Assembly (NCBI RefSeq): GCF_009733845.1
Contig: NZ_WNXZ01000007.1
Coordinates: forward strand, 1 to 64,000
From: Pseudactinotalea terrae
GTDB lineage: Bacteria; Actinomycetota; Actinomycetes; Actinomycetales; Beutenbergiaceae
Direction: 5' to 3'
DNA length: 64,000 nucleotides
Of this stretch, positions 34,082-61,810 are shown one piece after another. Position 1 is the stretch's first letter. Each line of letters begins with the position of its first letter. The position numbers and the translations under genes were made by a program. A model generated the notes under the pieces. The model did not search any database and was not told where the DNA came from. It saw nothing but the letters and a program-made list of their open reading frames with translations.

Positions 34082-34280
34082 GACTTGCTACCTCCAGGTC
34101 CGCTCGCCGAGCGCTCGCATACATGTGGAGATGATTATTCCCCGCACACCGGACGTAGGGAGACACCGTAGTCTCGGCGGCACTGCGCAGACCGGCTCCC
34201 GGACGGGGTGAGATCAGATGAAGTCAGCACGAGGAGACACAACAGCGCCGAGTGGGCCTCGATCGTGCGAGAGCTCGGAG

Positions 34281-34766: not shown

Positions 34767-34775
34767 GCTGCACGC

Positions 34776-36218: not shown

Positions 36219-36219
36219 T

Positions 36220-36459
36220 CTACCCGATCTCCGGAAAGACCGACCGACAGATCGCTACCAGTTCGGCCGCCTTGGTCGCGTCGAGCTGGATGGACTGACT
36301 CACAGTTCCTTTGTCCTTCCGTTCGGGCGAGCCGTAGGTATCGATCTGCAAGACACGCAAGCCCTCGCGCGTCGCCACCCGCCATGTCGCGTCCGACACG
36401 GAATGGGGTCTGCCTCGGTCGAGGGGATCGAGGGCAGAGAGTGATTCGAGGTATGCCAT
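36220..36459 (-). CDS. Small conserved protein, possibly PC4-like DNA-binding
   Basis: A 79-aa protein: a short N-terminal segment (LSALDPLDRGRPH), then WRVATREGLRVLQIDTYGS, SQSIQLDATKAAEL and a C-terminal helix. Proteins of this size and pattern occur beside defence helicases and are sometimes mislabelled as formyltransferase. The order of strands and the final helix suggest a PC4-like fold that could bind single-stranded DNA; this is inference. It starts ten bases after the giant helicase gene on the same strand, so it is probably the third gene of that operon. Confidence 0.6.
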   Translation of the reverse strand: MAYLESLSALDPLDRGRPHSVSDATWRVATREGLRVLQIDTYGSPERKDKGTVSQSIQLDATKAAELVAICRSVFPEIG

Positions 36460-36469
36460 GGGTTCTCTC

Positions 36470-41692: not shown

Positions 41693-41700
41693 GTCAACGC

Positions 41701-44700: not shown

Positions 44701-44712
44701 ACTGTTCGACAC
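41701..44712 (-). CDS. Large defence protein of unknown fold (possible DruH-like)
   Basis: A 1003-aa soluble protein with no enzyme motif I can identify. Residues 1-230 are helical. The middle (about 420-600) is beta-rich. A probable zinc site lies at about 700-740 (SCFYTG and [13 protein letters not shown], three Cys visible). The C-terminal 300 residues are mixed. It begins with GTG and is followed after eight bases by the DUF1998 helicase. A large uncharacterised protein paired with a giant DUF1998 helicase is the layout of Druantia type III (DruH-DruE). The assignment rests on that, not on sequence comparison. Confidence 0.6.
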
Positions 44713-44858
44713 CCGCGTCTCGTCCCCCGTTGGTCCAGATTAGGTTGATGCTGTGACCGTATCGAAGGGCTGTGACAACGGGCGTCGTACCTGGACACGA
44801 TCCCATAACCATTAGCCTGGCCTGAGCAGCGATGCGGACGAAGAGGGCGGGACTGACA

Positions 44859-46733
44859 ATGACGCATCTGGCCGAGCCATCTGTCGGTGACGAGCGCAGC
44901 GAGGTGTTGACGAGCCTTGCAGCGGGACTCGCCATGCTCTCGGCGACCGAGGTCACACCCACCGAGGTCGACGAGGTCGTGCCCTTCGACGCCGAGGACG
45001 TGACCTTCGACGCCGAGGCCACCTGGCTCGATCAGCTCGTGCTCGTGCAGGACTGGCTGCGACTCGATCATCGCCTGGATCCCTTCGCGAGCACGGCGAC
45101 GCTGGCGACCCGATTGTTCGACGGCCTCGGAGCGAGGGACCACAGCGAGCTCTACGTGCTCGACGGCGACAGCCTGGTGCTCACGGATGCCGGCGTGGAC
45201 CTTCTCCGGGCGCGCGTCGAGCGGGCGACTGCCCTTCGTGATTCCTTCCTGGCCTCCGTCGAGACAGGCTCGCGGTCGGCCGCGACGGCGGAGTGGTTGA
45301 CCGCGTGGGACGACAGTCTCACCGCCACGGTGTCCGGTCGGATCCGCGCCAAAGCGGAGGTCTGGTCGATACACGACTTCGCATCGCGAGCGAAGTCTGG
45401 GCGACTCGACCTCAGCCCCTCGTATCAGCGGGGCGACGTCTGGCCGACTGCAGACGCACAACTCCTGATGGAGTCGATCCTCCGTGGGATCCCGTTGCCG
45501 TCGATCATCATCCTGCGGCCGCGGTCGGTCGCGGACGCACCGTTCGAGATCGTCGACGGCAAGCAGCGGCTGACCTCGATCCTCCGGTTCATCGGTGCGC
45601 ATCCCACAGCGCTCGAGTCGGTCGAGGCAGCCAACAGACAGCACCCAGGATTCGATCTCCCGCATCTGTTCCGCACCAACTACCCGGCCTTCCGACGGGC
45701 ATGGGCCGATGCGACCGGCGAGCGACTGACTACGACCCTGGAGCGGTCCTACTTCTTCCCGTACCGGCTCGCCTCTGGAGCCTCTGGACTGTCCGGCGAG
45801 CTGGCACCCTTCGCCGGGAAGTACTACCACGAGATCACCGATGAGTACGTGCACGTGGGTGGAGAGCAGGTGGCCGTCCGGGACGTGTTCGAGTCCACGA
45901 CGGACTACAAGATTCCTGTGATCGAGTACACCGAGGCGACACCTCGACAGATTCACGAGGTCTTCAGTCTCTACAACAAGCAGGGCAAGCACCTGAATGC
46001 GGAGGAGATCCGCAACGCGGTGTACCACGAGCTCCATCTGATGCGCGCCCTGTCCGCCGCTTCCGGCGACGCCCCGAGCATCCGCAAAGCGGCTCCATTC
46101 CTAGCAGCCGTCGGGGGTGACGCCGCTGACATCAGCAAGTTCCTGCAAGACGCGGGCATCGCAAGCGCGCGCTACCGCCGCACCAAGGTCCTGTCATGGC
46201 TGATGTCGATGCTGGTGGTCGAGTCGCTGAACGAGCGCGGAGAGCCGCGCAGGCTCTCGACCGCCAGCCAGATCAACGCGATGCTCGACCGAGCACAGCA
46301 CCCAGGCGACCCGCTGAACGACCCCGGAACCATCAACGAGCTCATCTCGCTCGTAGCTCTCGGCATGCGGGCGCACAGCGAGTCCGATGCCTGGGCGGAC
46401 ACGTTCAAGGACGGCAACCTGGGCAAGCGATGGCAAGACCTTCAGCTAGTGGCGAGCCTGACGGGCGTCTGCCTTGCGGGGGCGGCCCTTGGGCCGACTG
46501 TGGTGCCTGTTCTGACTGAGAATGCCGAGCGCATCAGGGCGGTGTCCGCGTCGGAGTGGAAACGACCCGCGAAGACGCAGACCTCCGTGCAGTGGGACTA
46601 CCTCGGACGCGTGGCTGTGAAGATGCTCAAGTTGCTGAAGGTCGATCCGCAGCGGGCGCACGAGGCGGTTCATTCGCTGTCTGGTGCCTCGTCAGTTACG
46701 GCTTTAGTAAGAGCCGCGGTCGAGTCGGAGTAG
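44859..46733 (+). CDS. DUF262-domain protein
   Basis: A 624-aa protein. The N-terminal 170 residues are acidic and not recognised. The central part is a DUF262 (ParB/GmrS-like) domain: LSPSYQRGDVWPT, LRGIPLPSIII and the hallmark FEIVDGKQRLTSI. In GmrSD-type enzymes this domain hydrolyses nucleotides to drive cutting of modified DNA. No HNH or other nuclease domain is seen in the C-terminal half. It is divergent from the 1003-aa gene with a 146-base gap between starts, so it may be co-regulated with that operon. The ATG at 44859 follows GGGCGGGA. Confidence 0.75.
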   Translation: MTHLAEPSVGDERSEVLTSLAAGLAMLSATEVTPTEVDEVVPFDAEDVTFDAEATWLDQLVLVQDWLRLDHRLDPFASTATLATRLFDGLGARDHSELYVLDGDSLVLTDAGVDLLRARVERATALRDSFLASVETGSRSAATAEWLTAWDDSLTATVSGRIRAKAEVWSIHDFASRAKSGRLDLSPSYQRGDVWPTADAQLLMESILRGIPLPSIIILRPRSVADAPFEIVDGKQRLTSILRFIGAHPTALESVEAANRQHPGFDLPHLFRTNYPAFRRAWADATGERLTTTLERSYFFPYRLASGASGLSGELAPFAGKYYHEITDEYVHVGGEQVAVRDVFESTTDYKIPVIEYTEATPRQIHEVFSLYNKQGKHLNAEEIRNAVYHELHLMRALSAASGDAPSIRKAAPFLAAVGGDAADISKFLQDAGIASARYRRTKVLSWLMSMLVVESLNERGEPRRLSTASQINAMLDRAQHPGDPLNDPGTINELISLVALGMRAHSESDAWADTFKDGNLGKRWQDLQLVASLTGVCLAGAALGPTVVPVLTENAERIRAVSASEWKRPAKTQTSVQWDYLGRVAVKMLKLLKVDPQRAHEAVHSLSGASSVTALVRAAVESE

Positions 46734-47099: not shown

Positions 47100-48974
47100 C
47101 TAAGCACTTTGGGCAGCCTGGATCTCAAGGTTTCGATAGAGTGCGTCCTTCATCGTACTCCAGCGCCCCCTCAAGAAGGAGCGGTATGCCTCCAACGTCA
47201 AGCCAGGCTCGCTAATATCGACATCCTCTGCTCTGCAGAGTAGAAGCCGGTCAAGAACGGCACGCTCCTCCTTTGACAATTGGTGGGCCGAAAGATACTC
47301 AGAAATAGTCTGCTCAGACTTTTCGCGATTGAGAATCTTGGTGAAAAGGGCAAGATTCGCGATACAGCTGATTGGCCAACCGGGCCCTTCGCTGGACACG
47401 ATCACACGCTTCAATCGGGAGACCGGGTACAGATGCTCCAACTCAAACTGGTGCTTCTTGTCGTCCTTGAAAGATACGAGACCCGCATATACAAAGCGCA
47501 GCAGCAAACGATCGACTGCTCGAACATACTGCCTGCTGCGCTGCTCCCTCTCGAGCTGCTTTCCGAACCACGTATCGAGCGCGTTCTCCCACGTACGCCG
47601 CTCAATTGGGCGACTATAGTAGGGCGAAGGATCTATTGCTCTTCCATCGTCGTCCATTTCCCAGACCCGTGAGAATAGCGTCGAGTAGATCGGCCCGCGC
47701 CAAGTCTCCTCAATTGCGTCCATGAGGTAGTGCTGCGGAACCGCGAGCGCAAGCCGTTTCCAATCCGCCTCCCAGTTGGGTCGTTCTGACCAGTCGCCCC
47801 TCGTGTCCCACCGGCCGGCCGCAGTGCGCGCAATAATCGAAACGATCTGGAGTTCACCATGTGCAATATCTATGCCATCGGATGTATTGTTTAGTCGGAG
47901 CCCGACGAATGGTGCCAGCCATCTTTGAACTTCAGTCGCTGCGGCGGTGAGGCAGGCTTCCATCTCGGCCGGATCGATAATCCCATCCTCAGCCCGGGGC
48001 ATGAACTCGGGCAGGAGAGCCATCCGCGATAATTGCTGACCCCGCACCACGCAACTGAGCGAAAACGCGGCCGGCTCCGTCTCCGCGGGATCGGACCGCT
48101 GGTTGAACAGCAGACTATGGCCACGGACCAGACACTTTCCGAATCCGAATAGGTACTCGAAGAGGTTGAAGTCTTGGATTGCGCGGCCAGAATCGAGATC
48201 GCTTATCGCGAATCCGCGGGATATGAGTGCGTCGTACTTGTCATTGATTGCGACGCGAACGTCAGTGGAATTGACCTGCGTCTGCGAGTTGCTCATCCAT
48301 GTGGCTGCAAACACCTCGTACTTGTTGAGCTTGGTCCCCGACTGATTGATGCGTTCGAAGATTTCGGGCAATTCACCTTCGGGCCCCGCGTAGGTGACCA
48401 CCGGTAGCGATACGGCGGTGATATCGACGGCAACCTTCAACTCGTCGAGCGCCTCCTCGATGAGGACATCGAGCTCCGCGGAACGCTTCGATGGCAATAC
48501 ATCGAGTGCGTCAAAGACGAACGCCGCAAGATTGTGCGGGGAGAAGCCTGCGGCGAATGTGAGTTTCTTCGTTGCGCGCATCCAATCCTGGATGGCGCGT
48601 TCGACGTGCAAGGAGTCGCGCTCGATGAGGTGGGCGATGCCGCTGATATGCGGTGCGCTTAGCAGTTTGCTCGATGCATATGTCAGCGGTTGTTCGCTAT
48701 AGCCAATCAATGTGCTTGTCCGCTGAAGTCCGTCGACAACTTGGTATGTCTCGTGCTGACCACCGGGATTCGGACGCCGATAAAGAAGGATCGAGCCTAT
48801 CGGATAGCCGCGATGTATTGAGTCGATGAGGTCAATTCTTTGTTGATCTTTCCATACCAGGCGGCGCTGGAACTTGGGGATTTCTACGCGCACCCCAGAA
48901 TCTGCTATCGCCTGGACCGCCTGGACCAGTTTACCGATGGTCCAGATCGAACTGCCAGCCGTATCTTTCAGCAT
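47100..48974 (-). CDS. DUF262-HNH (GmrSD-like) type IV restriction protein
   Basis: A 624-aa protein. The N-terminal DUF262 domain has IPKFQRRLVWKDQQR, RGYPIGSILLY and the hallmark YQVVDGLQRTSTLI. The C-terminal part (about residues 510-560) has FELEHLYPVSRL and later NLALFTKILNREKS, which fits the HNH-type DUF1524 nuclease of GmrD. Fusion of both halves is typical of BrxU/GmrSD-type enzymes that cut modified phage DNA. The start follows GGGAGAG. Codon use looks less GC-rich than the neighbours, a sign of separate acquisition. Confidence 0.75.
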   Translation of the reverse strand: MLKDTAGSSIWTIGKLVQAVQAIADSGVRVEIPKFQRRLVWKDQQRIDLIDSIHRGYPIGSILLYRRPNPGGQHETYQVVDGLQRTSTLIGYSEQPLTYASSKLLSAPHISGIAHLIERDSLHVERAIQDWMRATKKLTFAAGFSPHNLAAFVFDALDVLPSKRSAELDVLIEEALDELKVAVDITAVSLPVVTYAGPEGELPEIFERINQSGTKLNKYEVFAATWMSNSQTQVNSTDVRVAINDKYDALISRGFAISDLDSGRAIQDFNLFEYLFGFGKCLVRGHSLLFNQRSDPAETEPAAFSLSCVVRGQQLSRMALLPEFMPRAEDGIIDPAEMEACLTAAATEVQRWLAPFVGLRLNNTSDGIDIAHGELQIVSIIARTAAGRWDTRGDWSERPNWEADWKRLALAVPQHYLMDAIEETWRGPIYSTLFSRVWEMDDDGRAIDPSPYYSRPIERRTWENALDTWFGKQLEREQRSRQYVRAVDRLLLRFVYAGLVSFKDDKKHQFELEHLYPVSRLKRVIVSSEGPGWPISCIANLALFTKILNREKSEQTISEYLSAHQLSKEERAVLDRLLLCRAEDVDISEPGLTLEAYRSFLRGRWSTMKDALYRNLEIQAAQSA

Positions 48975-49948
48975 GATCTCTCCCTTGACACAACTCAACA
49001 TTGCTAGCAAAGGCTAGCGGAACGGATGGGACTCAGGGGTACGTCGATCGTCCTGCGCGCGGCTCAATCGTCGTCGGGCTGGCCTGCAGGTTTCCGGCTC
49101 GCTCAAGGCATCACGATTGATCTCGTCCAGAGCCTTGGTGACGGTTTGGGACATCAGTGGTCAATGTTGGCGCGAGCCGGGCAACGGGCAGCACGGCGGC
49201 GAGCAGGCGGTCACCCAGCCAGACACTGACGCGGCGCGCTGCCAGTTCTACGGTGTCTTAATGGATGAGCAAATGGGTACCGTTGGGCACTCGGCATGGG
49301 AAGCATGTGCCTTCATCATGGCTACGATTCCAGTTTGGCAGTGGCCGCCCGGCAGGATATCCATCTGTGTGACTCGGTGTCGTGAGCGATCATCCCTTGC
49401 GGCGGGCGCGGGGCAGGGCGATGCCGCCCGCGCGATCGGAAACGATGACTCTGTAGGGGCCGCGCCCGGAGCAAGTAGCGGGGCCGCCGTGAGGCGACGC
49501 TCTGAGTCCTTGTGCCGGGGCTCCGGCAAGTGGTGTGTGCCCAGTCAGTCCCCGCGCTCTCCGGCCCCTATTCACGGTGCGGTGGCATCCGGCGGCCTGG
49601 GGACCCGTAGACGCCGTCGAGATGACGATCGCGTCGAGCACTTCCGCTGCGGTCTCACCGTCGAAGTTGTGCACCGCGGCTGTGTCGAGGGCGTCATGCC
49701 TCACGGATCGAGCGTGTGGTCTCGCGGAGCGGGTTCGCGACCTTTGCCTCAGACCCTTCGTTCGACGCCCGGACCGGGAGCCTCCCGTAGAGAATCGTCA
49801 GGGCCGAACGATGTGGCGCGGCACGTAGCGGTGAGTACTTCGCGGCCAGCGTTTCCAATCCCCTATTCTCGTGGGCTAGCGGTACCGACGGACTTCGCGT
49901 GCGACATGTCCCCCACCGCACGAGTAATCGTGCTGCCCGGGGAGACAG
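48975..49948. other. 974-base stretch without a convincing gene
   Basis: Several frames are open on both strands but none has a good start region or a recognisable family. A minus-strand frame at 49390-49704 (MRHDALDTAAVHNFDGETA) is the most protein-like and could be a decayed gene. Together with 46734-47099 it brackets the lower-GC DUF262-HNH gene, so it may hold the scars of insertion. The last 20 bases carry the ribosome binding site (GGGGAGA) of the next gene. Confidence 0.4.
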
Positions 49949-52252
49949 ATGGCGTCGACGTACCGCCTGCAGGCGGCCGATCTGGTGCGGATGTTCGAGC
50001 CGCCCTCACCCGGGGAGGAGCAGCTCGCGCGGACACTCGCCTACTCGGGCGCCTCGCCGTCGGCCTCGGAACGGCAGTCGTGGCGGGCGTCGCTGCCCGT
50101 ACTTGGCCGAGACCTGGTCGACGCCGACCTTGGCCACATCGAGGTTCTGCTTGAGCATCGCCTACCGCTGAGCTCGAAGCGGACCGATGCCGTTCTCGCG
50201 GGCGTGCACCCACGCACTGGCCATCCCTCGTACGTGGTGGTCGAACTCAAGCAATGGTCGAATGCGCACCGGTGGGAGGACGACGACATGCTCGTCGAGG
50301 TACCAGGCGCCGCCTACCGACCCGTACTGCACCCGTCGCTCCAGGTGGCTGGGTACGTCGGCTACCTCCGCGACTTCACCACGTCGATCGACGCCACCCA
50401 CGCTTCGATTCAAGGCGTCGCCTACCTGCACAACGCGGCCGATACCGGCGTCGCCGAGCTGTGGTCCGTCCCGGCCGCACATCAAGCGCCGGTGTTCACC
50501 GGCCAGCGTCGCGGCGAGTTTGTCGATTTTCTGCGAGGCCAGTTCTCTGACGAACCTGGCCGCAGCGCGGCCGATGTCCTCCTCGGGTCCGCGATCCGCC
50601 CCTCGAAGCGCCTGCTCACAGTTGCGGCCGCCGAGATCCGCGAGCGCGAGAACTTCATCCTCCTCGACGAGCAGCGCGTCGCCTATCAACTCGTGCTGCA
50701 CGAGGTCGAGGCGGCTCGACGCGAAGATCACAAGACCGCCGTCGTGATCTCGGGCGGACCGGGCTCGGGCAAGAGTGTCATCGCTCTCGCCCTCCTTGGT
50801 GAGCTCGCTCGAAGCGGGCGAGCCGCGCTCCATGCGACCGGCTCTCAGAGCTTCACGCAGACGCTGCGCAAGGTGGCGGGACACCGCTCCCGTGAGACGC
50901 AGTCGCTCTTCAAGTACTTCAACTCGTTCATGAACGCCGACCGCAACGGTCTCGACGTCCTTATCCTCGACGAGGCGCACCGTATCCGGGACAAGTCCGT
51001 CAACCGGTACACGTCCAAGGTGGTTCGCGAGCACGCGGGTCCGCAGATCGACGAGCTCCTCGACGCCGCCCGCGTGCCCGTGTTCCTCCTCGACGAGCAT
51101 CAAGTGGTCCGCCCGGGTGAAGTCGGCTCCATCGACCTCATCGAGAGCCGTGCAGAAGAACGCGGGATCGACATCAGACACGTCGACCTCAACGCCCAGT
51201 TCCGCGCCGGCGGGAGTGAGGCCTACATCAGCTGGGTGCTCAGCCTTCTCGGCCTCGCTCCGGGTGGCCCACAGCCCTGGCGGGGTGACGAGCCCACCTA
51301 CTCGCTCGACGCCGTCGACAGTCCCGAAGAGCTCGAGGCTCGCCTGCTCCTGCACCACGACGGCGGGGCGACTGCCCGTATGACCGCAGGCTATTGCTGG
51401 CGGTGGAGCGACCCGACGAAGGACGGGCAGCTCGTCCCTGACGTCACGATCGGTTCGTGGCAGCGCCCGTGGAACGTCAAGGGCGATCGGCGCGTGGGCG
51501 ACGCGCCGCCGTCACAGCTCTGGGCAACCGAGTTGGGCGGCTTCGAGCAGGTCGGCTGTGTCTACACCGCGCAGGGATTCGAGTACGACTGGAACGGCGT
51601 GATCCTCGGCCCCGACCTCGTGTGGCGCACCGACCGATGGGTCGCCGTACGGGAGGCAAATCGAGATCCGGCGTTCCGATCCCGCTCGGCTGTGAGTGAC
51701 GTGGAGTTCGACCGGCTCGTGCGGAACGTCTATAAGGTCCTCCTCACGCGCGGGATGCGCGGGACGCTGGTGTACTCAACCGATCCCGAGACTCAGGAAC
51801 TGCTGAAGTCCCTGGTGCTAAGGCGGGGAACCGTGGCTCAAGTCACTGGCGGTACTCCGTTGGTTGGCAATCCCTCGGCTGCATACGTCGTTGGTGAACC
51901 GTCACGGCCGAAGGAGAAGGTCTCCACAGTCCGAGTGACGGGCCTGACGCCACAGTCAGTGCTCAGAGACTTCGTTCTGCTGGCACTCCGCGACCTAGGA
52001 GGGTCTGCGACGAAGGAGAAGGTCCTCGACCGGATCGACGAACGCTTTGGCGCCGGCTTGACGCGGGATGACCGCCGGCGGCAGCCCTCGAACAACGAGG
52101 TCAAGTGGGAGAACCAGGCCGCCTGGGAGCGCAACGCCATGGTCACGGACAAACTGATCGAGCCTTATGTCCGTGGCGTCACCACGCGCGGTGTCTGGAC
52201 CCTCACACCACTCGGGCGGGTTGAGGCCGACCGGCTCGCAGACGGCGGATAA
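49949..52252 (+). CDS. DUF2075 helicase with N-terminal nuclease-like domain
   Basis: A 767-aa protein in three parts. Residues about 30-180 contain RTDAVLAGV and YVVVELKQW, the Asp and E-x-K pattern of a PD-(D/E)XK nuclease. Residues about 260-650 are a DUF2075 helicase (Schlafen group 3-like): Walker A GGPGSGKS, DEAHRI, and FLLDEHQVV. The C-terminal 100 residues form a winged-helix-like domain (DLGGSATKEKVLDRI; GVWTLTPLGRVEAD). Such proteins are found in defence islands. It stands alone, with its own ribosome binding site. Confidence 0.78.
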   Translation: MASTYRLQAADLVRMFEPPSPGEEQLARTLAYSGASPSASERQSWRASLPVLGRDLVDADLGHIEVLLEHRLPLSSKRTDAVLAGVHPRTGHPSYVVVELKQWSNAHRWEDDDMLVEVPGAAYRPVLHPSLQVAGYVGYLRDFTTSIDATHASIQGVAYLHNAADTGVAELWSVPAAHQAPVFTGQRRGEFVDFLRGQFSDEPGRSAADVLLGSAIRPSKRLLTVAAAEIRERENFILLDEQRVAYQLVLHEVEAARREDHKTAVVISGGPGSGKSVIALALLGELARSGRAALHATGSQSFTQTLRKVAGHRSRETQSLFKYFNSFMNADRNGLDVLILDEAHRIRDKSVNRYTSKVVREHAGPQIDELLDAARVPVFLLDEHQVVRPGEVGSIDLIESRAEERGIDIRHVDLNAQFRAGGSEAYISWVLSLLGLAPGGPQPWRGDEPTYSLDAVDSPEELEARLLLHHDGGATARMTAGYCWRWSDPTKDGQLVPDVTIGSWQRPWNVKGDRRVGDAPPSQLWATELGGFEQVGCVYTAQGFEYDWNGVILGPDLVWRTDRWVAVREANRDPAFRSRSAVSDVEFDRLVRNVYKVLLTRGMRGTLVYSTDPETQELLKSLVLRRGTVAQVTGGTPLVGNPSAAYVVGEPSRPKEKVSTVRVTGLTPQSVLRDFVLLALRDLGGSATKEKVLDRIDERFGAGLTRDDRRRQPSNNEVKWENQAAWERNAMVTDKLIEPYVRGVTTRGVWTLTPLGRVEADRLADGG

Positions 52253-52275: not shown

Positions 52276-53415
52276 TTACTCCTGCATCTTGCTGTGGGGC
52301 GATGCACCTGGCCGTCGATGCGCCCGCAGTGGGGGAAACCGTCTTTCGTTGAGATCGATCTTTGCACCGGTGACCTGGAGTAGGTCGATCTGCGCGACAT
52401 CGGCGAGGCGGGCCAGGTAGATGAGCACGTCAGCCATCTCCTGACTGACACGTTCGCGGAGGGCGGCGTCCTCGATGACAGCCGTTCGACTCGCCTCGCC
52501 GTCGAGCCACTGGAGCTCGGCTGCCAACTCGCCTGCTTCACCTGCAATCGCCATCGCAAGGTTCTTCGGGGTGTGGAACTGGTCCCAGTCACGAGCGGCG
52601 GCGAAGGCTCTCAGACGGTCGGTGAGTGCCTCGACGGTCCCAGTAGCGCTCTCGGCGCGCCGTGTGACGTCGGGGACGACGGTTGCACTTGCCGGTCGCC
52701 GTGGCGGATGGTGCGGTGCGGGCGGAGCGACGATGTAGCCGGTCTCGATATCACCAAAGGCCATCAGGGTTCCGGGGTCGTTGTCGAACAGCCAGGCGAG
52801 GTAGGCGCACACGACTGCGTCCACCTCGTCCTCGACTGAGTCCAGGTCCACCGGACGGGCACTGCGTGACACAACCGCTCGGATCTCCTGCCACCGTGCG
52901 TTCGTCTCGAGGGCGAGGATGTGCCATGTCTCCATGAGATCCAGGAGCCTGATCAGCTCGGACCTCCGCCCCTCGATTCGGCCCTTCTTGTACCGGACCA
53001 CCCACTCAAGGCCGAGCAGGCCCACGAGCGCCGCGTGGGGGTACACCTCAACGCACACCGGACGGCCGGAGCTCGCCGGATCCACCTCCCAGCCGTGGCG
53101 CTCCGCAAGGAGCTCAGCGCGCGGGGGGTTCATGTACGCACGGGAACGGTTGCTCGCATGGCAGCTCGCGCCATAGCGGCCGTAGGCCACGCCGACCAGC
53201 CGTTCGCACTCGCGCATCCCGGTCTCGTTCGGAACGATCAACGGGGCGTCCACGGCAATGACTTGCGGCGCGCCGGCAAAGGTGCCTAGCCACGCGTCGA
53301 TCTCGTCATCGGTACGTCCCGATCCAGATGCGATAAGGCGTCCGGCCGTGTCCACCACGGCCAGACCTGTACGCGCCCGGTCGCCCCAAGCGAGGTCGAT
53401 GCCGACATAACTCAT
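52276..53415 (-). CDS. DUF429 - MazG-like pyrophosphohydrolase fusion
   Basis: A 379-aa fusion. Residues 1-235 are a DUF429 domain (MSYVGIDLAWGDRARTGLAV, IAVDAPLIVPN, EVYPHAALVGLLGL, DEVDAVVCAYLAW), an RNase H-like fold with conserved acidic residues. After a Pro-rich linker, residues about 255-360 are MazG-like: AMAIAGEAGELAAELQWL and VSQEMADVLIYLARLAD give the E-x-x-E and E-x-x-D metal sites. MazG enzymes cut (d)NTPs or alarmone-like nucleotides to monophosphates. The fusion is unusual. It starts at the ATG complementary to 53413-53415 and is divergent from the DUF6361 operon, 54 bases away. Confidence 0.78.
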   Translation of the reverse strand: MSYVGIDLAWGDRARTGLAVVDTAGRLIASGSGRTDDEIDAWLGTFAGAPQVIAVDAPLIVPNETGMRECERLVGVAYGRYGASCHASNRSRAYMNPPRAELLAERHGWEVDPASSGRPVCVEVYPHAALVGLLGLEWVVRYKKGRIEGRRSELIRLLDLMETWHILALETNARWQEIRAVVSRSARPVDLDSVEDEVDAVVCAYLAWLFDNDPGTLMAFGDIETGYIVAPPAPHHPPRRPASATVVPDVTRRAESATGTVEALTDRLRAFAAARDWDQFHTPKNLAMAIAGEAGELAAELQWLDGEASRTAVIEDAALRERVSQEMADVLIYLARLADVAQIDLLQVTGAKIDLNERRFPPLRAHRRPGASPHSKMQE

Positions 53416-53469: not shown

Positions 53470-54681
53470 ATGCCGTCTCTCCTCGCCTGGCTCGACACGA
53501 CTGAAGATGAGCAGCGCGTATCCCGCGAGCTGATGTCGCTCTTCGTCGAGCCCGAGGGCCGCGACGAGCTCGGGATCGGGCAGGTCCGTGACGCGTTTAG
53601 CGAGCTGCTCTTTCCCGGCACCACGACCCTGCTCACCCGAGCGCGGTACTACCTGCTGGTGCCGTGGTGCTATCGCGACGGTCGCGCCCGCGGCACCTCC
53701 GGTGAGGAGTGCTTCCGGATCGGCCAGCGGCAGGAGCGGGACCTCATCGGCGCCCTCCGCCACGAGCTCCAGCCGGGAGAGACCGGGCTGATCGGGGCCA
53801 CGCTCGGCGCCAACGTCCGCAATCTGCCCTCCGTCTACTACTGGGGTGGCCTCATCCGCTTCGGGATCCTGGCCAGCGGCGTCGATGTGCACCATCTCGG
53901 CCGCCACCAGCCCGACACCTCGGAGGCGACCGAGCTCGCCGAGCGGGCGGTCACCGACTGGGATCCCACGCTCCCCAGTCCGCCTCCCCGACGCGAGGGG
54001 GAGGACGGGTTTCCCTGGCGGATGCCCGGCGGCTTCCGTCTCACGCCCGAGGAGTCGCAGTACCTCACCGAACGCATCGTCCGGAGCGTCCCCGACACCG
54101 CCCTCGCGGCACTCCTCCTCCGTGACGACCCGCTCCCCGACACGCGGTTCGCGTGGGACTTCCTCGACGACGGCGTGCCCCACCTTCGCCACGCCCGGCT
54201 GTTCTCCGCCGCGATTCACGGCGCGCAGATCCTCTACAACCTGCTCGTCGCCGAGCGATACGTCGCGACCCCGGACCTCGACCGCTACGACGTGGACATC
54301 CTGGACGAGTACCGCACCCTCCTTTACGACTGGGCGGACGAGCTTCCTGCGGCCGACCTCGCCACCTGGGACGTCCCCGAGATGTGGCGCACCGTCACCG
54401 GCGTCAACCCCCGCATCGCCCCCGCCACCAGGGCCTTCATCGACGCGTGGATCACCGCAGTCCGGACCGACCCACAGCAGGTGGCGGACGACCCCCGGCT
54501 CCGGAACGCCGTCGAGAACCGCGAGCGCCGCAAGGGCAAGCGGTCGCGCTTCGCCAACCGCAAGCTCCTCGCTAGCTGGCCCCGCGACTCGGGCATCGGC
54601 CGGCTCGACTTCCGCTGGTCCACCGTGAAGCGGATCGTCGACGACATCCACCAGGGCAGGACGATCGATGCTGCGGCCTGA
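53470..54681 (+). CDS. DUF6361-family protein, first gene of a three-gene operon
   Basis: A 403-aa protein. The N-terminal block is characteristic of DUF6361: PSLLAWLDTTEDEQRVSREL, DELGIGQVRDAFSELLFPGT, LTRARYYLLVPWCY. The rest is helical with many Arg and Asp, and no catalytic motif is evident. The basic C-terminal segment (ENRERRKGKRSRFANRKLL) could touch nucleic acid. The ATG at 53470 begins the conserved block; the frame is open further upstream but that part is not conserved in kind. It overlaps the PLD gene by 14 bases. Confidence 0.7.
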   Translation: MPSLLAWLDTTEDEQRVSRELMSLFVEPEGRDELGIGQVRDAFSELLFPGTTTLLTRARYYLLVPWCYRDGRARGTSGEECFRIGQRQERDLIGALRHELQPGETGLIGATLGANVRNLPSVYYWGGLIRFGILASGVDVHHLGRHQPDTSEATELAERAVTDWDPTLPSPPPRREGEDGFPWRMPGGFRLTPEESQYLTERIVRSVPDTALAALLLRDDPLPDTRFAWDFLDDGVPHLRHARLFSAAIHGAQILYNLLVAERYVATPDLDRYDVDILDEYRTLLYDWADELPAADLATWDVPEMWRTVTGVNPRIAPATRAFIDAWITAVRTDPQQVADDPRLRNAVENRERRKGKRSRFANRKLLASWPRDSGIGRLDFRWSTVKRIVDDIHQGRTIDAAA

Positions 54682-56473
54682 CGACCGGACGATCCTCCTC
54701 GACAGCTTGCGCCCGCCCGCCGGCTACGTGCTCGACGCCGCCGTCGCCACCACATTCACGCTCAGCCTGCCGGCCGCGGTGCTGCCGCCTCTGGCCTTCA
54801 GCGCGTTCGCGATGAGCTCCTCCGCACCGGACCCTGTCGCGCTGCTCCAGGCGATCCGTAGCGCCGCGGACAAGGTGGACATCTTCTGCCAGGCGGGCGC
54901 TGTCGCGATCCCGCCCGCGCCCTACGACCTGTTCGCGTTCCTCGAGCCGATGATCCATCAGGTGCGGCGGCCGCAACGCGGGCTGTTCCACCCCAAGGTC
55001 TGGGCCGCGCGCTTCACGGCCGATGACGCCGCACCCTGCTACCGCGTGCTCGTCCTCACCCGGAACCTCACCCACGACCGCACCTGGGACCTCGCCGTCC
55101 GCCTCGACTCCGCCGAGGTCGGCACCCGCCAGCCCGCCAACGACGGCCTCGCCTACCTCATCGCGAGCCTCCCCGACATGGCGCTCGCCCTCCCCCGGAG
55201 ACGTGCCGACCGCGTGCGCCGGCTCGCACGCGATCTGCGAAGCGTGTCGTGGCAGCCCATCGACGGCGTCTCCGACCTCACGTTCCATCACCTGTACGAC
55301 GGGGGGCCGGTGCCGTCGTTCATGGGCGGGCGGCACCTCGTGGTGTCGCCGTTCGTCGACGACAACGGTCTGCAGCTCCTGCGGTCGGCGCGGCGTGACA
55401 CCGTCCTCGTGTCTCGCGAGGAGGAGCTCGACACCCTCAGCCCGGAGACACTCTCCGGCCTCGAGACCTATGTGCTCAGCTCGAGCCTCACCGAGGCCGA
55501 CCCCGACACGGACGAACCGTCCACGCTCGGGAGCCTGCTCGGCCTGCACGCGAAGCTGGTCATCGACGAGGACCCAGCCACCCGGGGACGGCGCGGTCCT
55601 GTCTCGATGTACGTCGGCAGCGCCAACGCGACCTCAGCCGCATGGGTCGGCGGCAACGTCGAGCTCATGCTCCAGCTCGACGGCGCACGCCAGGACCTGG
55701 GCGTCGACGCGCTCCTCGACCCCAGGACCGGCTTCGGGGCTCTGCTCGAGAGCTATGCCACCACGGGCGGCGCCGAGCCCGATCCCGAGGACGAGGAGCT
55801 CCGTCAGCTGGAGAACCGCTTGCGCGCGATCGCCGAGATCCCGCACACGGTGACCGTCGCTCCCGACGAGCAGGGCACCCACACGCTGACGGTCACCGCA
55901 GCGCGCCCGTACCGACTCGAGAGCGGCTGGACCTGCATCGTCTACCCATTGACGCTTGCCCAGCGAGGCGGCGGCAGCCCGATCGACGACGCCACCTTCC
56001 ACCACGTGGGGACGACGGAGGTCACTCCGTTCGTCTGCGTCTCGATCACCTCGGAGTCGGGCGCGAGCGCCGGAACGGTGCTGCTGGCCAAGCTCGTCGG
56101 CGACCCTCCCGACCGTCTCGACCTCACGCTCGCCGAGCAGCTCAGCACGCCCGAGAAGTTCCTCCGGTTCCTGCTCCTCGTGCTCTCGCTCGGCAACCCG
56201 CACCTTCTCGCACAGCTGCAACGGGCAGGCGCCCTCGCAGGTGACGTGACGACGTCGCTCGTGGACCTGGGGACCGGGCCGGGGATCCTCGAGCTGGTCT
56301 TGCGTGCTCTCGCGGAGCGGCCAGAGTCGCTCGACGACCTCGCGGCGGTCATCGAACGCCTGCACGATCGCCGCGGTCCCCACGGTGAGCCGATCCTGCC
56401 TCCGGGGTTCGAGGCGTTGTGGTCCGCCGTCGAGGAAGCGCGGCGAGCGCTCACCTCAGGAGGTGCTCGGTGA
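54668..56473 (+). CDS. Phospholipase D-like protein, second gene of the operon
   Basis: A 601-aa protein of the PLD superfamily. The first half-site is FHPKVW (His108, Lys110) followed by LTRNLT, and the second is LHAKLVID (His294, Lys296) followed by VGSANAT. Two HxK half-sites and the downstream Asn-containing strands form one active site, as in PLD-type nucleases of defence systems (DISARM DrmC, Mokosh). The C-terminal 200 residues are of unknown fold. It overlaps the genes on both sides (14 and 4 bases), so the three proteins are made together. Confidence 0.8.
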   Translation: MLRPDDRTILLDSLRPPAGYVLDAAVATTFTLSLPAAVLPPLAFSAFAMSSSAPDPVALLQAIRSAADKVDIFCQAGAVAIPPAPYDLFAFLEPMIHQVRRPQRGLFHPKVWAARFTADDAAPCYRVLVLTRNLTHDRTWDLAVRLDSAEVGTRQPANDGLAYLIASLPDMALALPRRRADRVRRLARDLRSVSWQPIDGVSDLTFHHLYDGGPVPSFMGGRHLVVSPFVDDNGLQLLRSARRDTVLVSREEELDTLSPETLSGLETYVLSSSLTEADPDTDEPSTLGSLLGLHAKLVIDEDPATRGRRGPVSMYVGSANATSAAWVGGNVELMLQLDGARQDLGVDALLDPRTGFGALLESYATTGGAEPDPEDEELRQLENRLRAIAEIPHTVTVAPDEQGTHTLTVTAARPYRLESGWTCIVYPLTLAQRGGGSPIDDATFHHVGTTEVTPFVCVSITSESGASAGTVLLAKLVGDPPDRLDLTLAEQLSTPEKFLRFLLLVLSLGNPHLLAQLQRAGALAGDVTTSLVDLGTGPGILELVLRALAERPESLDDLAAVIERLHDRRGPHGEPILPPGFEALWSAVEEARRALTSGGAR

Positions 56474-59400
56474 GGTACTCGGCCGAGCCGGTCCTGGATG
56501 GTCTGACAGCGTTCCAGCGGCGGACCGTCGACCACGTGATCGAGCAGCTCTACGGCGTCGGCGCGGACCGGCTCCTCGTGGCCGACGAGACCGGGCTGGG
56601 CAAATCGATGGTGGCGCGGGGTGTCATCGCTCGCGCCGTCCAGCACCTGCAGGACGTCGACAGCGTCGAGCGCATCGACGTGGTCTACGTCTGCTCCAAC
56701 CTCGACCTCGCCAACCAGAACATCCGGCGCCTGCAGGTGACGGACGACGACGTCATCCCCTTCGCGAGCAGGCTCACCCTCCTCGGCAAACACTCCGCCG
56801 AGCTCTCGCGGCCGACGACGGACCACAAGCCGGTCAACCTCGTGTCGTTCACACCCGGGACGTCGTTCGACCCGAAGTCCAGCACCGGCTCTGCCGAGGA
56901 ACGAGCGATGCTCTACCTGCTGCTGGAGCAGCTGCTGGAGCTGCGGCGGGCGCGCACGACCGCCGGGCTGCGCCTGCTCCAGGTCGGCGTACGGAGTTGG
57001 CGACGCTTCAAGGGCCGTGTCGACGACCTGACACGCGAGCTGCGCGACCACGGCATCGACCCGGCGATCGTCGCCACGTTCCAGACGCTGGCGAGCGAAC
57101 GAGGCGAGCTCGCCAGCTTCGAGGAACTCGTGCAGCGCACGGTCGGGCACGACGCCGTGCCGGCGGACCTCCACGGGCCGAGCCGGGCGCTGGTCGGTGC
57201 GCTGCGCCGCACCCTCGCTGAGGCGAGTGTCGCCACCCTCGAACCCGACCTGGTGATCCTCGACGAGTTCCAGCGGTTCCGGCACCTGCTGAGCACAACG
57301 AACCCGGCCGGTGAGCTCGCGCACCACCTCTTCGACTGGCCGGACGCGAAGGTGCTGCTGCTCTCCGCCACGCCGTACAAGCCGTTCACGTACGCGGAGG
57401 AAGGTGCGGAGGAGAACCACGAGCGCAGCTTCCTCGAGGTGCTGGACTTCCTGACCACGGGTCGATCGGACGTCTCGACCGAGGCGGTGGCGGGCGAGCT
57501 GCGGGAGTACCGAGACGCCGTCGTACGTGGCCGACCTGCAGCCGACATCACGCAGCGCCTGCAGCGCTCCCTGCTCAGGGTGATGACGCGTGCGGAGCGC
57601 CCGCGCAACGAGCACGACGGGCTCCGGGAAGTGGTCGCCGGGGCGCTGCCCATCACCGCCGAGGACCTCGTGGGATACGCGCAGCTCCATCACGTGGCGC
57701 AGAGGGTGCGACAGGATCGCGACGGCGCCCTCGTCTCCGCCCCGTACTGGAAGAGCGCACCGTACTTCGCGACGTTCTGCGAGGGCTACCGGCTCGGGAC
57801 GCGGCTCAAGGAGGCGCCGGCCGAGGCGGTCGATGCGTTCGGGCGGCTGCCGCAGGTGCGGCGCGACGACCTGGAGGGTTTCCGGCCGATCGATCCGGGC
57901 AACGCACGCATGCGCCATCTCGTTGACACCACGATCGGCGAGGGGTGGTGGCGACTTCTGTGGGTGCCGCCGTCGATGCCGTACCTCACGCCTGGTCGAC
58001 CGTTCGTTGACGATGACGGTCAGCCGGTCTCGATGACCAAGCGGTTGGTGTTCTCGTCTTGGACGGCGACGCCGTCGGCGGTCGCGAGCCTGCTGTCCTA
58101 TGAGGTCGAGCGATTGGCCGCTCAGGGCACCGACGGCAGTCCGTCGAACTACGCCGAGTACACGGCGGCGGCACGGCAGCGGCTACGCCTCCCCTTCTCT
58201 TACTCGGTGGCCGATGATCGGCCGTCCTCGATGGCGACGCTGCTGCTGTTCTGGCCGTTCCCCGGGTTGGCGGACATGGCCGATCCCCTGCGCCTGGTCG
58301 CCGAGGCCGGGGGCGAGCCGCTGACGCGGCGCCAGGCGTGGGAACGCGCGCGACCGGGTGTAGCTCGAGCCGTGGGTGGGTCCGAGGATGTCTCGGAGGA
58401 CGCGTCGCCGCTGCTGGAGGCCGAAGGGGAGATGCGTCCCACGATCTGGCGCGCGGCCTTCGCGCGGGCCCAGGCGTGGCCGGAGCTCGCAGATCACGCG
58501 ATCAGTGAGGTCCTGGTCCCGCTACGACGAAAGGCCGAGGACAGCGAGGACGACGACGCGCCGTCGGACCCGGTGGGTCTTGCCGCCCACATCGCGGCCG
58601 CACGCGAGGCGCGTCAGGGGGAGCGCCCTGAGCCGGATGCGGACGCCGTCGATCTGCTGACGTTGGTGGCGCTGCACGCGCCGGGCACCATCGCCTGGCG
58701 CGCGCTGGGGCGGCAGCTCGAGGGTGCTGACGTGAGCGACGCGGGCCACTTCCGTGCAGCCGCCGTGCTCGCCAACGGTCTGCGGTCCCTGTTCAACCGC
58801 CCGGATGTCACGAAGCTGATCGAACGCGTGACGGACCCCGGCCCGTACTGGCGACGCGTCCTGCAGTACACGGGACGCGGCAATCTTCAAGCGGTGCTCG
58901 ACGAGTACATCCACCACCTGCGAGCGGATCAGTTCGCAGCACCGTTGACCGACGAGTCGCTCATGGAGCTGGCGACGACGGCCGCATCCGCCGTGAGCCT
59001 GCGGTCCTCGACGTACCGAGCTCTCGACCTCGCGGACGTGCACGGGCCGGGTCTGGCGTTCACGCCGAGGTTCGCGCTGCGCTACGGCGGCCGCAAGCAA
59101 GACGCCGAGGATGCACGGCAGCCGGAGGTGCGGCGGTCGTTCAACAGCCCGTTCTGGCCGTTCGTGCTGGCGTCGACATCGGTGGGGCAGGAGGGCATCG
59201 ACTTCCACTGGTGGTGCCATGCGGTGTTCCACTGGAACATCCCGCCCAACCCGGTCGACTTCGAGCAGCGCGAAGGCCGGGTCGATCGATACCGCGGGCA
59301 TGCGGTGCGGAGGAACGTCGCGGAGAACCATGCCCGCGAGGTCTTGCGAGCTCCTGGGACGGATCCGTGGGCGACGGCGTGGAGGCTAGCGGCGCATGAC

Positions 59401-59640
59401 GAGGAAGGGTTCACGCCGTCGTGGGTGTATCCCGGCAGCGCACGCGTGGAACGGCACGTCGCGCCGTACCCGCTCTCGAGCGACGAGCCGCAGTACGACC
59501 GGGTGAAGGAAGACGTGGCGCTCTACAGGCTCACGTTCGGACAGCCTCGGCAGGAAGACATGCTCACGCTGCTGAAGGAACGTGGGCTGGGGGACGATCG
59601 CGCTTCAGCTGAAGCCCTGCGGGTGCGCTTGGTGCCATAG
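56470..59640 (+). CDS. SNF2-type helicase, third gene of the operon
   Basis: A 1056-aa superfamily 2 helicase. Walker A is VADETGLGKSMVARG (about residues 37-51), the DE-box is VILDEFQRF (about 261-269), motif III is LLSATPYKP (about 295), and motifs V-VI are VGQEGIDFHWW and DFEQREGRVDRYRGH (about 900-940). Between the two RecA-like halves lies a long insert of some 500 residues. GTG at 56470 overlaps the PLD stop (GTGA); the longer frame would run into the PLD gene. Motor for the operon's nuclease activity is the likely role. Confidence 0.82.
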   Translation: MRYSAEPVLDGLTAFQRRTVDHVIEQLYGVGADRLLVADETGLGKSMVARGVIARAVQHLQDVDSVERIDVVYVCSNLDLANQNIRRLQVTDDDVIPFASRLTLLGKHSAELSRPTTDHKPVNLVSFTPGTSFDPKSSTGSAEERAMLYLLLEQLLELRRARTTAGLRLLQVGVRSWRRFKGRVDDLTRELRDHGIDPAIVATFQTLASERGELASFEELVQRTVGHDAVPADLHGPSRALVGALRRTLAEASVATLEPDLVILDEFQRFRHLLSTTNPAGELAHHLFDWPDAKVLLLSATPYKPFTYAEEGAEENHERSFLEVLDFLTTGRSDVSTEAVAGELREYRDAVVRGRPAADITQRLQRSLLRVMTRAERPRNEHDGLREVVAGALPITAEDLVGYAQLHHVAQRVRQDRDGALVSAPYWKSAPYFATFCEGYRLGTRLKEAPAEAVDAFGRLPQVRRDDLEGFRPIDPGNARMRHLVDTTIGEGWWRLLWVPPSMPYLTPGRPFVDDDGQPVSMTKRLVFSSWTATPSAVASLLSYEVERLAAQGTDGSPSNYAEYTAAARQRLRLPFSYSVADDRPSSMATLLLFWPFPGLADMADPLRLVAEAGGEPLTRRQAWERARPGVARAVGGSEDVSEDASPLLEAEGEMRPTIWRAAFARAQAWPELADHAISEVLVPLRRKAEDSEDDDAPSDPVGLAAHIAAAREARQGERPEPDADAVDLLTLVALHAPGTIAWRALGRQLEGADVSDAGHFRAAAVLANGLRSLFNRPDVTKLIERVTDPGPYWRRVLQYTGRGNLQAVLDEYIHHLRADQFAAPLTDESLMELATTAASAVSLRSSTYRALDLADVHGPGLAFTPRFALRYGGRKQDAEDARQPEVRRSFNSPFWPFVLASTSVGQEGIDFHWWCHAVFHWNIPPNPVDFEQREGRVDRYRGHAVRRNVAENHAREVLRAPGTDPWATAWRLAAHDEEGFTPSWVYPGSARVERHVAPYPLSSDEPQYDRVKEDVALYRLTFGQPRQEDMLTLLKERGLGDDRASAEALRVRLVP

Positions 59641-59729
59641 TCCGTGTGACGAGGTTCGAGCATGCGAGCGGTCGATGGGCTAGAGAGGGAGAGGCGAGCA
59701 TGACGCCGCAGGACGTAGGGGAGGAAACA

Positions 59730-60401
59730 GTGGATCCCTCGCGCATCGAGATCGGTTCCACCACCGTTGGTGCCGTCATGGCGGATCTTGCCCGCCACCG
59801 TTCGGTGTTTCACAGCGAAGCGGATCTCCAGTTCAGCTTCGCGCAGACCGTCGAGAGGTTGTCGTACGGCCGGGTTCGGTGTCGGCTGGAGGCCCCGATC
59901 AGGGACCCAGAATCTGGACGGACTACCTACCTCGACCTCCTCTGTCTCGCCGAATCTGGCGACGTCGGGATCGAGTTCAAGTACTTCACCCGCTCGTGGA
60001 CCGGATCGGCGCAGGGCGAGACGTACTCGCTGCGCAACCATGCCGCGAGCGACCTCGCCCGGCTCTACTTCGTCAGTGACGTGAGTCGATTGGAGGCCCT
60101 CACGGCGGCGCGCTCCTGCCAAGGCGTCGCCCTCATGATGAGCAACGAGCCTCGCCTCTGGCAGCCTCCGGGCCCGCGCGCGCGAGCTCGGAACGACCGG
60201 GCCTTCGGCATCCATGAGGGCGCATCACTCTCGGGAGAGCTTCGATGGGGGAACGGCTACGCAGCCAATACCCGGACACTGCGAGGCCGCTACGACGCCG
60301 TCTGGCGCGACTTCTCCGCACCCGACCCGGGAGTACCCGGTGGCACTTTGAGGTGGCTGGCACTCGCAGTGGGCCCTGCGGCGGGGGGTACTGCAACCTG
60401 A
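59730..60401 (+). CDS. PD-(D/E)XK nuclease-like protein
   Basis: A 223-aa protein with HSEADLQFSFAQ, then TYLDLLCLAESG and VGIEFKYFTRSW, giving the Glu, Asp and E-x-K pattern of a PD-(D/E)XK fold. The C-terminal part (SGELRWGNGYAANTRTLRG) resembles small nuclease-like proteins that sit at the end of defence operons. GTG at 59730 follows GGGAGGAAACA and is a good start; ATG at 59700 is possible too. It is 89 bases past the helicase stop on the same strand, so it may be a fourth component. Confidence 0.6.
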   Translation: MDPSRIEIGSTTVGAVMADLARHRSVFHSEADLQFSFAQTVERLSYGRVRCRLEAPIRDPESGRTTYLDLLCLAESGDVGIEFKYFTRSWTGSAQGETYSLRNHAASDLARLYFVSDVSRLEALTAARSCQGVALMMSNEPRLWQPPGPRARARNDRAFGIHEGASLSGELRWGNGYAANTRTLRGRYDAVWRDFSAPDPGVPGGTLRWLALAVGPAAGGTAT

Positions 60402-60514: not shown

Positions 60515-61810
60515 GTGGCGGACTGGCAGCCTCTCCGGGAGCTCTTGCAGGGCGTTTCCGGCTCCATCACGCTCGGGTGGCACGAACTCGACACGCTTGT
60601 CGGCGGTCTGCCGCCCTCGGCCTCGCGCTACCGGGAGTTCTGGTCTAGCGACAGGAGCACCTGGCGAGGCTTCAGAGTCAGCGACGTCGACGTAGGCGGC
60701 TCCGTCACGTTCACTCGCGGCGTCGGCGTTGATGGGCAGCTCCCGACCACCGTCTCCGAGCACCGCGAGTTGCCAGGCTCGAATCCGCGCAGGCTGGCAG
60801 CGAGCACGAGAGCGGATGTCGTGCTCGTCAGCTGCGCCAAGTCCAAGGCAGATCACGAGGCACCCGCGGCTGACCTCTACGTGTCGCCGTTGTTTCGGTT
60901 CACACGCGCGTACGCCGAGGCGACTGGCAGACCGTGGTTCATCTTGTCTGCGAAGCACGGGCTGGTCCGTCCCGACCAAGTGCTGCAGCCTTACGACCTC
61001 AACCTCGGCGACCTTGATCGAGGGTCGCAAGGAACGTGGGCACGACAGGTCTCCGACGACCTTGCGCTCGCCCTGGATGGACTGGCCGGCGCGGTGATCG
61101 AGATTCACGCCGGTGAGACATACACCCGCCACCTCCGAGCGCGCCTGCTCCGGGCCGGCGCCTTCGTCGGGGAACCACTCCACGGGCTCACGCTCGGCGA
61201 GCGGCTGGCGTGGTACTCCAACGCAGACCGGGAGAGTGTCGAGTCGGCCGCGGTCCCCGAAGGGCTGCTGCAACAGGACGAACTCGTTCGCCGGCTGACG
61301 AATCACGCTTACGCCCGCACCCCTGCGGAGGTTGTGGCAGGTGCGGATGCCGCACTCCTCCAGCCGGGGATGTATAGCTGGTGGGTAGACGCCGCCGGTG
61401 CGCGTGAGCTGAGCCAGGGACTGGGCCACGAGATAGCACCGGGACTGATCTACGCGGGCCTGGCAGGGGCGACAAGACGGCGGAGTCAACGTCGGTCGAG
61501 CAACACGCTGCGCGGGCGGCTCGTCGGAATGCACCTGGGAAGTAGGTACCGGTTCTCCACCTTCCGCTACAGCCTGGGTTCAGTGCTGGCCTGCGCCTGG
61601 GAAGCTGACGTGATCGATGAGCAAGGGCTGACGTCTTGGATGCACGACCATCTGCGTGTCGTGGCTGTTCCGGTCGCCGACCCTGACGCTCTTGAGGGTC
61701 TTGAGGACCGAGTCCTGGAGATGCTCGACCCGCCCTTGAACCTCAGCAAGGTCCGTTCAACACCTACACGTCGGAAACTCACGGAACTACGCCGCCGCCA
61801 CAAACGCTGA
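60515..61810 (+). CDS. DUF7662 - DUF6884 - GIY-YIG-like fusion protein
   Basis: A 431-aa protein in three parts. Residues 1-75 resemble DUF7662 (LREL, then ITLGWHELDTLVGGLPPSA and a Trp-rich end). Residues about 105-235 are DUF6884, a YaaA-like fold: LVSCAKSKADHEAPAADLYV, WFILSAKHGLVRPDQVLQPY and EIHAGETYTRHLRARL. Residues about 290-420 look like a GIY-YIG nuclease (GMYSWWVD, GLIYAGLAG, RRSSNTLRGRLVGMHLGSRY). The start GTG at 60515 has no strong ribosome binding site. It follows the PD-(D/E)XK gene on the same strand. DNA binding and cleavage are suggested by the last domain; the middle domain's role is unknown. Confidence 0.65.
   Translation: MADWQPLRELLQGVSGSITLGWHELDTLVGGLPPSASRYREFWSSDRSTWRGFRVSDVDVGGSVTFTRGVGVDGQLPTTVSEHRELPGSNPRRLAASTRADVVLVSCAKSKADHEAPAADLYVSPLFRFTRAYAEATGRPWFILSAKHGLVRPDQVLQPYDLNLGDLDRGSQGTWARQVSDDLALALDGLAGAVIEIHAGETYTRHLRARLLRAGAFVGEPLHGLTLGERLAWYSNADRESVESAAVPEGLLQQDELVRRLTNHAYARTPAEVVAGADAALLQPGMYSWWVDAAGARELSQGLGHEIAPGLIYAGLAGATRRRSQRRSSNTLRGRLVGMHLGSRYRFSTFRYSLGSVLACAWEADVIDEQGLTSWMHDHLRVVAVPVADPDALEGLEDRVLEMLDPPLNLSKVRSTPTRRKLTELRRRHKR

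What the first reader, a model, noticed from the sequence alone, without database searches (positions are those of the whole stretch)
53470..60401. Coupled DUF6361 - PLD nuclease - SNF2-type helicase operon with a trailing PD-(D/E)XK gene: candidate undescribed anti-phage system
Seen: three genes overlap by 14 and 4 bases, and a nuclease-like gene follows 89 bases later. The PLD protein has both HxK half-sites (His108/Lys110, His294/Lys296) and the helicase has all core motifs. Known: PLD-helicase pairings occur in DISARM and Mokosh. Inferred: DUF6361 as first gene and a helicase with a 500-residue insert do not fit either, so this may be a separate system with DUF6361 as sensor or adaptor.
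Basis: partly seen in the sequence, partly recalled or inferred. Interest (0 to 1): 0.75.

Follow-up and report, generated by a model that had tools for sequence, protein, structure and literature searches.

The report
Azaca anti-phage system (known)
The three tightly coupled genes are a complete copy of Azaca, an already named bacterial anti-phage defence system whose mechanism is still unknown; the fourth, nuclease-like gene looks like an unrelated neighbour.

Summary
All three proteins match, nearly end to end, one named system in PADLOC: ZacA (1.4e-109), ZacB (1.9e-160) and ZacC (1071 bits). This is Azaca; a published list reads 'Azaca (ZacC)' and the helicase was placed in SNF2. In 80 named loci found with ZacB alone, ZacC follows in 80; ZacA precedes in 73, and the other 7 start at a contig end. 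Gene overlaps recur, and the three families share one history (distance correlations 0.91-0.94, 57 loci). The trailing PD-(D/E)XK-like gene is in 0 of 84 other Zac loci, and 5 of 5 loci around its relatives hold no Zac gene, so it is probably not a component. PLD and ATPase active sites are almost invariant. ZacC is predicted to fold as an SNF2 ATPase; ZacA is all-helical without a clear match. Inferred mechanism: ZacC moves on DNA and delivers or switches on the ZacB nuclease, with ZacA as adaptor or sensor. The locus lies in a defence island beside a Druantia II-like set.

The parts
53470..54681 (+). zacA (DUF6361), 403 aa, predicted all-helical
   Evidence: PF19888 E=1.5e-49; PADLOC ZacA PDLC03828 E=1.4e-109, model positions 1-393/396; AlphaFold2 mean pLDDT 89.3, no strand of 3 or more residues
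54668..56473 (+). zacB, PLD-family protein with two HxK half-sites, 601 aa
   Evidence: PADLOC ZacB PDLC03829 E=1.9e-160, 1-582/586; H108, K110, K296, N320 and E332 85/85, H294 84/85
56470..59640 (+). zacC, SNF2-type SF2 ATPase, 1056 aa
   Evidence: PADLOC ZacC PDLC03830 E=0, 1070.8 bits, 5-1016/1019; predicted fold resembles SNF2 remodellers
59730..60401 (+). neighbour, probably NOT part of the system: stand-alone PD-(D/E)XK-like protein, 223 aa
   Evidence: no Pfam, PADLOC or NCBIfam family up to E=1 and no PHROGs family up to E=0.1; found in 0 of 84 other Zac loci; no Zac gene in 5 of 5 loci around its homologues

Best explanation
The three genes are a complete Azaca (ZacABC) anti-phage system. 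Shown: family identity of all three proteins, the conserved order A-B-C with overlaps, shared descent of the three genes, intact active-site residues in ZacB and ZacC, and an SNF2-type predicted fold for ZacC. Inferred (about 0.45 for this mechanism): ZacC loads on double-stranded DNA of an incoming or replicating phage and translocates with ATP; this positions or switches on the two-half-site PLD protein ZacB, which cuts the DNA; ZacA is a helical adaptor or sensor that holds the two together or restrains ZacB until a phage signal appears. No gene family recurs beside most of the operons, so no dedicated methyltransferase was seen, and self/non-self discrimination probably rests on DNA state or a phage product. 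The confidence below is for the identity as Azaca.
For: PADLOC matches of all three over nearly their full length. 'Azaca (ZacC)' in a list of defence helicases; ZacC assigned to SF2_SNF2; a PLD-like domain listed for Azaca. From a ZacB-only query: a ZacC match after ZacB in 80/80, ZacA before it in 73/80, the 7 without ZacA starting at a contig end. Overlaps recur. Distance correlations A-B 0.909, A-C 0.913, B-C 0.938 over 57 loci, largest of 200 permuted values 0.122. Active-site conservation. SNF2 fold: Foldseek 5.4e-05 (TMq 0.24), VIA Z 16.4 (409 aligned, rmsd 7.4). No flanking family in more than 9 of 85 loci.
Against: PLD enzymes can act on lipids or proteins as well as DNA (recalled). 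Pfam sees only a sub-threshold PLD match in ZacB (E=0.32). One of 85 ZacB rows has D in place of H294. No call states in words that ZacA and ZacB are the other two Azaca proteins; that rests on the shared name stem, consecutive PADLOC accessions and recall.
Confidence: 0.9

Rival explanations
1. Same Azaca system, but ZacB acts by abortive infection: once triggered it degrades host as well as phage nucleic acid (or membrane lipid), and ZacC is the sensor rather than a delivery motor, as published for the nuclease-helicase complex Hachiman.
For: A helicase-as-sensor design is published for Hachiman, where HamB constrains the nuclease HamA until DNA damage is met (starts of abstracts shown). No gene family recurs beside most Azaca operons.
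Against: HamB is placed in Ski2 while ZacC is SNF2; nothing here measures cell fate.
Confidence: 0.3
2. A new, undescribed three- or four-gene defence system.
For: DUF6361 is not named in any paper of the held library; the trailing gene is only 89 bases away on the same strand.
Against: All three proteins match one named system over nearly their full length; the trailing gene is in 0 of 84 other Zac loci and 5 of 5 loci around its relatives hold no Zac gene.
Confidence: 0.02
3. A variant of DISARM or Mokosh carrying DUF6361.
For: The C-terminal helicase motifs of ZacC match DrmD models (5.1e-12 at best, 7e-14); a PLD-like domain is listed for Mokosh.
Against: The DrmD matches cover about 43-83 residues of ZacC, 51.1 bits against a cut-off of 610 in NCBIfam. 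No Mko model matched any of the four proteins up to E=1, while ZacC scores 1070.8 bits with its own model.
Confidence: 0.01

Closest known systems
Azaca (ZacA-ZacB-ZacC)
   Same: All three proteins, PLD-like domain, SNF2 helicase; order and overlap style as in the other loci found here.
   Different: Nothing essential seen. The nearest ZacB among the named loci is 48% identical in its best segment (Humibacillus, L036; that tool may leave out very near relatives).
DISARM
   Same: SNF2-like helicase with related C-terminal motifs. That some DISARM types carry a PLD protein is recalled.
   Different: No full-length Drm match. That DISARM has a methyltransferase and no DUF6361 is recalled, not tested.
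Mokosh
   Same: PLD-like domain plus helicase.
   Different: MkoA/MkoC are placed in SF1 Upf1, ZacC in SF2 SNF2; no Mko match.
Hachiman (HamAB)
   Same: Small system joining a helicase and a nuclease; a possible mechanistic model.
   Different: HamB is placed in Ski2. An unrelated nuclease and no DUF6361 are recalled.

Membership tests
Azaca | ZacA (DUF6361) present, full length | tested here: met
   E=1.4e-109, 1-393/396
Azaca | ZacB (PLD family) present, full length, catalytic residues kept | tested here: met
   E=1.9e-160, 1-582/586; both half-sites
Azaca | ZacC helicase present, full length, motifs kept | tested here: met
   1070.8 bits, 5-1016/1019; motifs
Azaca | Three genes adjacent in order A-B-C | tested here: met
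   window coordinates; same order in other loci
Azaca | Protection against phage | not testable with these tools
   needs plaque assays
DISARM | DrmD/DrmA-type helicase over its full length | tested here: not met
   DrmD 51.1 bits against a cut-off of 610, residues 885-942 only; PADLOC Drm matches equally short
Mokosh | MkoA/MkoB or MkoC proteins | tested here: not met
   no Mko family up to E=1 in the tables for the four proteins

The most novel reading that the evidence does not exclude
ZacA is a previously undescribed all-helical fold that senses a phage product or DNA state and gates a PLD nuclease riding on an SNF2 translocase, so that Azaca would be a translocation-coupled nuclease that needs no DNA modification for self-protection, used from Actinomycetota to haloarchaea.
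Probability: 0.25. Interest if true: 0.5.

Novelty: already known. Interest (0 to 1): 0.15.

Why it matters
It removes a false lead for a new system and places a complete Azaca copy in a defence island. Azaca is still listed as of unknown mechanism in papers of 2023 and 2026 (passages read), so the conserved residues mapped here (ZacB H108/K110/H294/K296, ZacC K45, ZacA E352/K355/R382/W383) give direct targets for mutants.

Tried and rejected
Undescribed system: rejected. DISARM or Mokosh variant: rejected by relative scores. The trailing PD-(D/E)XK gene as a fourth component: rejected as unlikely (0 of 84 other loci). Of 394 class genomes, 7 including the own one hold a match to it; I fetched the loci of 5 of the other 6 and none holds a Zac gene; G614, a short match with a stop, was not fetched. 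Another conserved partner: the commonest flanking family occurs in 9 of 85 loci; 71 of 85 have over 1500 bases of room downstream and 68 of 85 upstream.

ZacB by family model: 80 of 396 phylum genomes pass E<=0.001, and 5 of 14 control genomes ring too, so that tally is loose; 5 of 396 have a long match (E<=1.4e-126), the own genome among them, and the other 75 only partial matches at 4.8e-11 or weaker. DUF6361 without its partners: 8 of 392 genomes have it, 0 of 14 controls. Five of these 8 have the long ZacB match; in G206 the gene runs off a contig end; G204 and G133 hold only fragments, with no ZacB or ZacC within the 15 kb read.

Solved structures by sequence: none for ZacB or the trailing protein alone or for the ZacA profile; for the ZacB profile one short match to a putative helicase chain, 7clg_A (3.8e-06); for the ZacC profile five RapA chains in a short motif region. 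Fold search for ZacA: best Foldseek E 0.56, VIA Z 4.1 at most; inconclusive, no family excluded. Virus-borne copies: none in viral contigs (15 pattern matches, none a relative); one unannotated phage record covers 58% of ZacB. Plasmids: 36 records, 30 of them covering at least 80% of ZacB. Simple promoter and terminator scans gave nothing above shuffles.

Literature: DUF6361, 0 papers. 'Zac' with defence terms, 0. One search was swamped (47,450 papers hold a term; of 20 listed none is relevant). One search (whole words) gave 4 papers, 2 of them the Hachiman papers. 'Azaca': 28 papers, 27 listed; 12 of the 27 look like defence or genome papers, and I read the passages with the word in all 12. 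None of those passages, and no title seen, gives a mechanism. Most subscription journals and preprints are not held. The original description (Millman et al. 2022) is not held; it is cited from recall and through passages of other papers.

Rows dropped: the ZacA alignment used 66 of 78 rows, and ZacC 63 of the 77 rows over 900 aa (84 in all); near-duplicate, partial and some over-long rows were left out. ZacB used all 85. The 57 loci of the distance test are those present in all three alignments. Gene starts were chosen by script, so overlap lengths are approximate outside the window.

Full report
At 53470-59640 three genes on the + strand overlap by 14 and 4 bases: a 403-aa DUF6361 protein (PF19888, E=1.5e-49), a 601-aa PLD-family protein and a 1056-aa helicase. 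A 223-aa gene follows after 89 bases.

The identity is not new. In PADLOC the three proteins match three models with one name stem over nearly their whole length: ZacA 1.4e-109 (1-393/396), ZacB 1.9e-160 (1-582/586) and ZacC 1070.8 bits (5-1016/1019). A passage of PMC12278908 lists 'Azaca (ZacC)', and a passage of the preprint PMC10925250 places ZacC in SF2_SNF2. A table of PMC10952713 lists a PLD-like domain for Mokosh and Azaca, citing Millman et al. 2022. A passage of PMC10482375 names Azaca among systems enriched in Actinobacteria and of unknown mechanism. That ZacA and ZacB belong to Azaca follows from the shared stem and consecutive PADLOC accessions, and from recall; no call states it outright for those two.

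Co-occurrence was tested without bias towards A or C by searching with ZacB only. Of 80 named loci returned (the best 80 of 247), all 80 have a ZacC match downstream of ZacB. ZacA is upstream in 73; the other 7 begin at a contig end, 21 to 159 bases before ZacB. Among the 73, ZacA is cut by the contig end in L106 and L086, and in L115 only a 227-aa frame matched. ZacC is split or cut in 8 loci (L047, L053, L061, L077, L079, L084, L090, L098). Hosts, with phyla assigned by me from the record titles, include Actinomycetota, Chloroflexota, Pseudomonadota, Bacillota, Verrucomicrobiota, Planctomycetota, Gemmatimonadota and Acidobacteriota. A haloarchaeal plasmid carries the same three genes in order, as do a Mesorhizobium and a Cronobacter plasmid; that Azaca occurs in archaea was already in print (passage). 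A and B overlap in 73 of 78 rows, by 8 bases in 44 and by 14, as in the window, in 18; B and C overlap by exactly 4 bases in 48 of 84 (starts chosen by script). Pairwise distances of the three families correlate at 0.909-0.938 over 57 loci, against a largest permuted value of 0.122. The three genes therefore travel as one unit.

The trailing gene is different. It was found in 0 of 84 other Zac loci. In 394 genomes of the class, 7 including the own genome match it, and the 5 other loci I fetched hold no Zac gene. Its family keeps a motif resembling PD-(D/E)XK (E30, D69, E82-x-K84); one of the five homologues lacks the E-x-K. It is best read as a solo nuclease-like neighbour. No other family recurs beside most operons: the commonest is in 9 of 85 loci. 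I scanned representatives of 8 recurrent flanking families against PADLOC: 7 of 8 match something at 1e-10 or better, three of them strongly (an Hma helicase, a type II methyltransferase and candidate PDC-S37), the others partially, such as a type I restriction enzyme at 1.3e-30; one (L078) has no match.

The system is an accessory of its host: ZacB is in 1 of 3 genomes of the genus, the own one, and as a long match in 5 of 396 genomes of the phylum. At the loose limit of E<=0.001, 80 of 396 genomes and 5 of 14 controls match, the other 75 only in part, at 4.8e-11 or weaker.

Mechanism. ZacB keeps both PLD half-sites (H108, K110 and K296 in 85 of 85, H294 in 84 of 85; N320 and E332 invariant). 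ZacC keeps every helicase motif residue counted in the 63 aligned rows. A model of ZacC (pLDDT 86.2) resembles SNF2-family remodellers: the Foldseek hits with E<=0.001 shown are INO80, SWR1, SRCAP, Chd1, CHD4, Isw1, SMARCAD1 and ALC1 chains, Rad54 following at 1.2e-3 (best E 5.4e-05, TMq 0.24); VIA gives Z 16.4 with ALC1 (409 aligned, rmsd 7.4). That these act on double-stranded DNA is recalled. ZacA (pLDDT 89.3) is all-helical with no clear match among solved structures. It has invariant W66, W125, W229, W288, E352, K355, R382 and W383 in 66 rows but no catalytic motif that I recognise. I therefore infer that ZacC is a DNA motor, ZacB the effector nuclease and ZacA an adaptor or sensor. These roles are inference; about 0.45 for direct DNA cutting by ZacB and about 0.3 for an abortive, Hachiman-like variant.

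Surroundings. The operon lies in a defence island: Vsr 34218-34766, DruM 34776-36218, DruE 36470-42205 and DruF 41701-44712 form a Druantia II-like set; then come two GmrSD_N proteins, a Schlafen-group-3 helicase with an Mrr N-terminal domain and a DUF429 protein with a weak MazG match, and downstream a DUF7662-DUF6884-GIY-YIG protein.

Verdict: a complete Azaca system, already known. The confidence of 0.9 refers to this identity. Interest is low, apart from the open mechanism of Azaca itself.

Noticed in passing
window 34218-44712: Druantia II-like set: Vsr, DruM (+ strand), DruE and DruF (- strand); the listed DruE and DruF frames overlap by 505 bases, so one start is probably over-extended.
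   Followed up: partly
window 52276-53415 (-): DUF429 protein with a C-terminal MazG-like stretch (MazG E=0.0027, below its cut-off), divergent from zacA with 54 bases between; its DUF429 part matches PADLOC candidate PDC-S44.
   Followed up: partly
window 49949-52252 (+): Schlafen-group-3 helicase domain fused to an Mrr N-terminal domain, a possible further defence gene; related frames lie near the Zac operon in L069 and L070.
   Followed up: partly
window 44832-46733 (+) and 47100-49010 (-): Two separate proteins with GmrSD N-terminal domains.
   Followed up: no
window 60515-61810 (+): Three-domain protein DUF7662 - DUF6884 - GIY-YIG_2, with a PADLOC candidate match PDC-M57A; a related frame lies next to the Zac operon in L037.
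   Followed up: partly
window 59730-60401; L123-L127: Small family of solo PD-(D/E)XK-like proteins with a conserved HSEADLQ-like start, without a match in Pfam, NCBIfam, PADLOC or PHROGs at the limits used.
   Followed up: partly
L138 (G204), L139 (G133): Fragments of zacA with no zacB or zacC within the 15 kb read, perhaps remnants of lost Azaca operons.
   Followed up: partly
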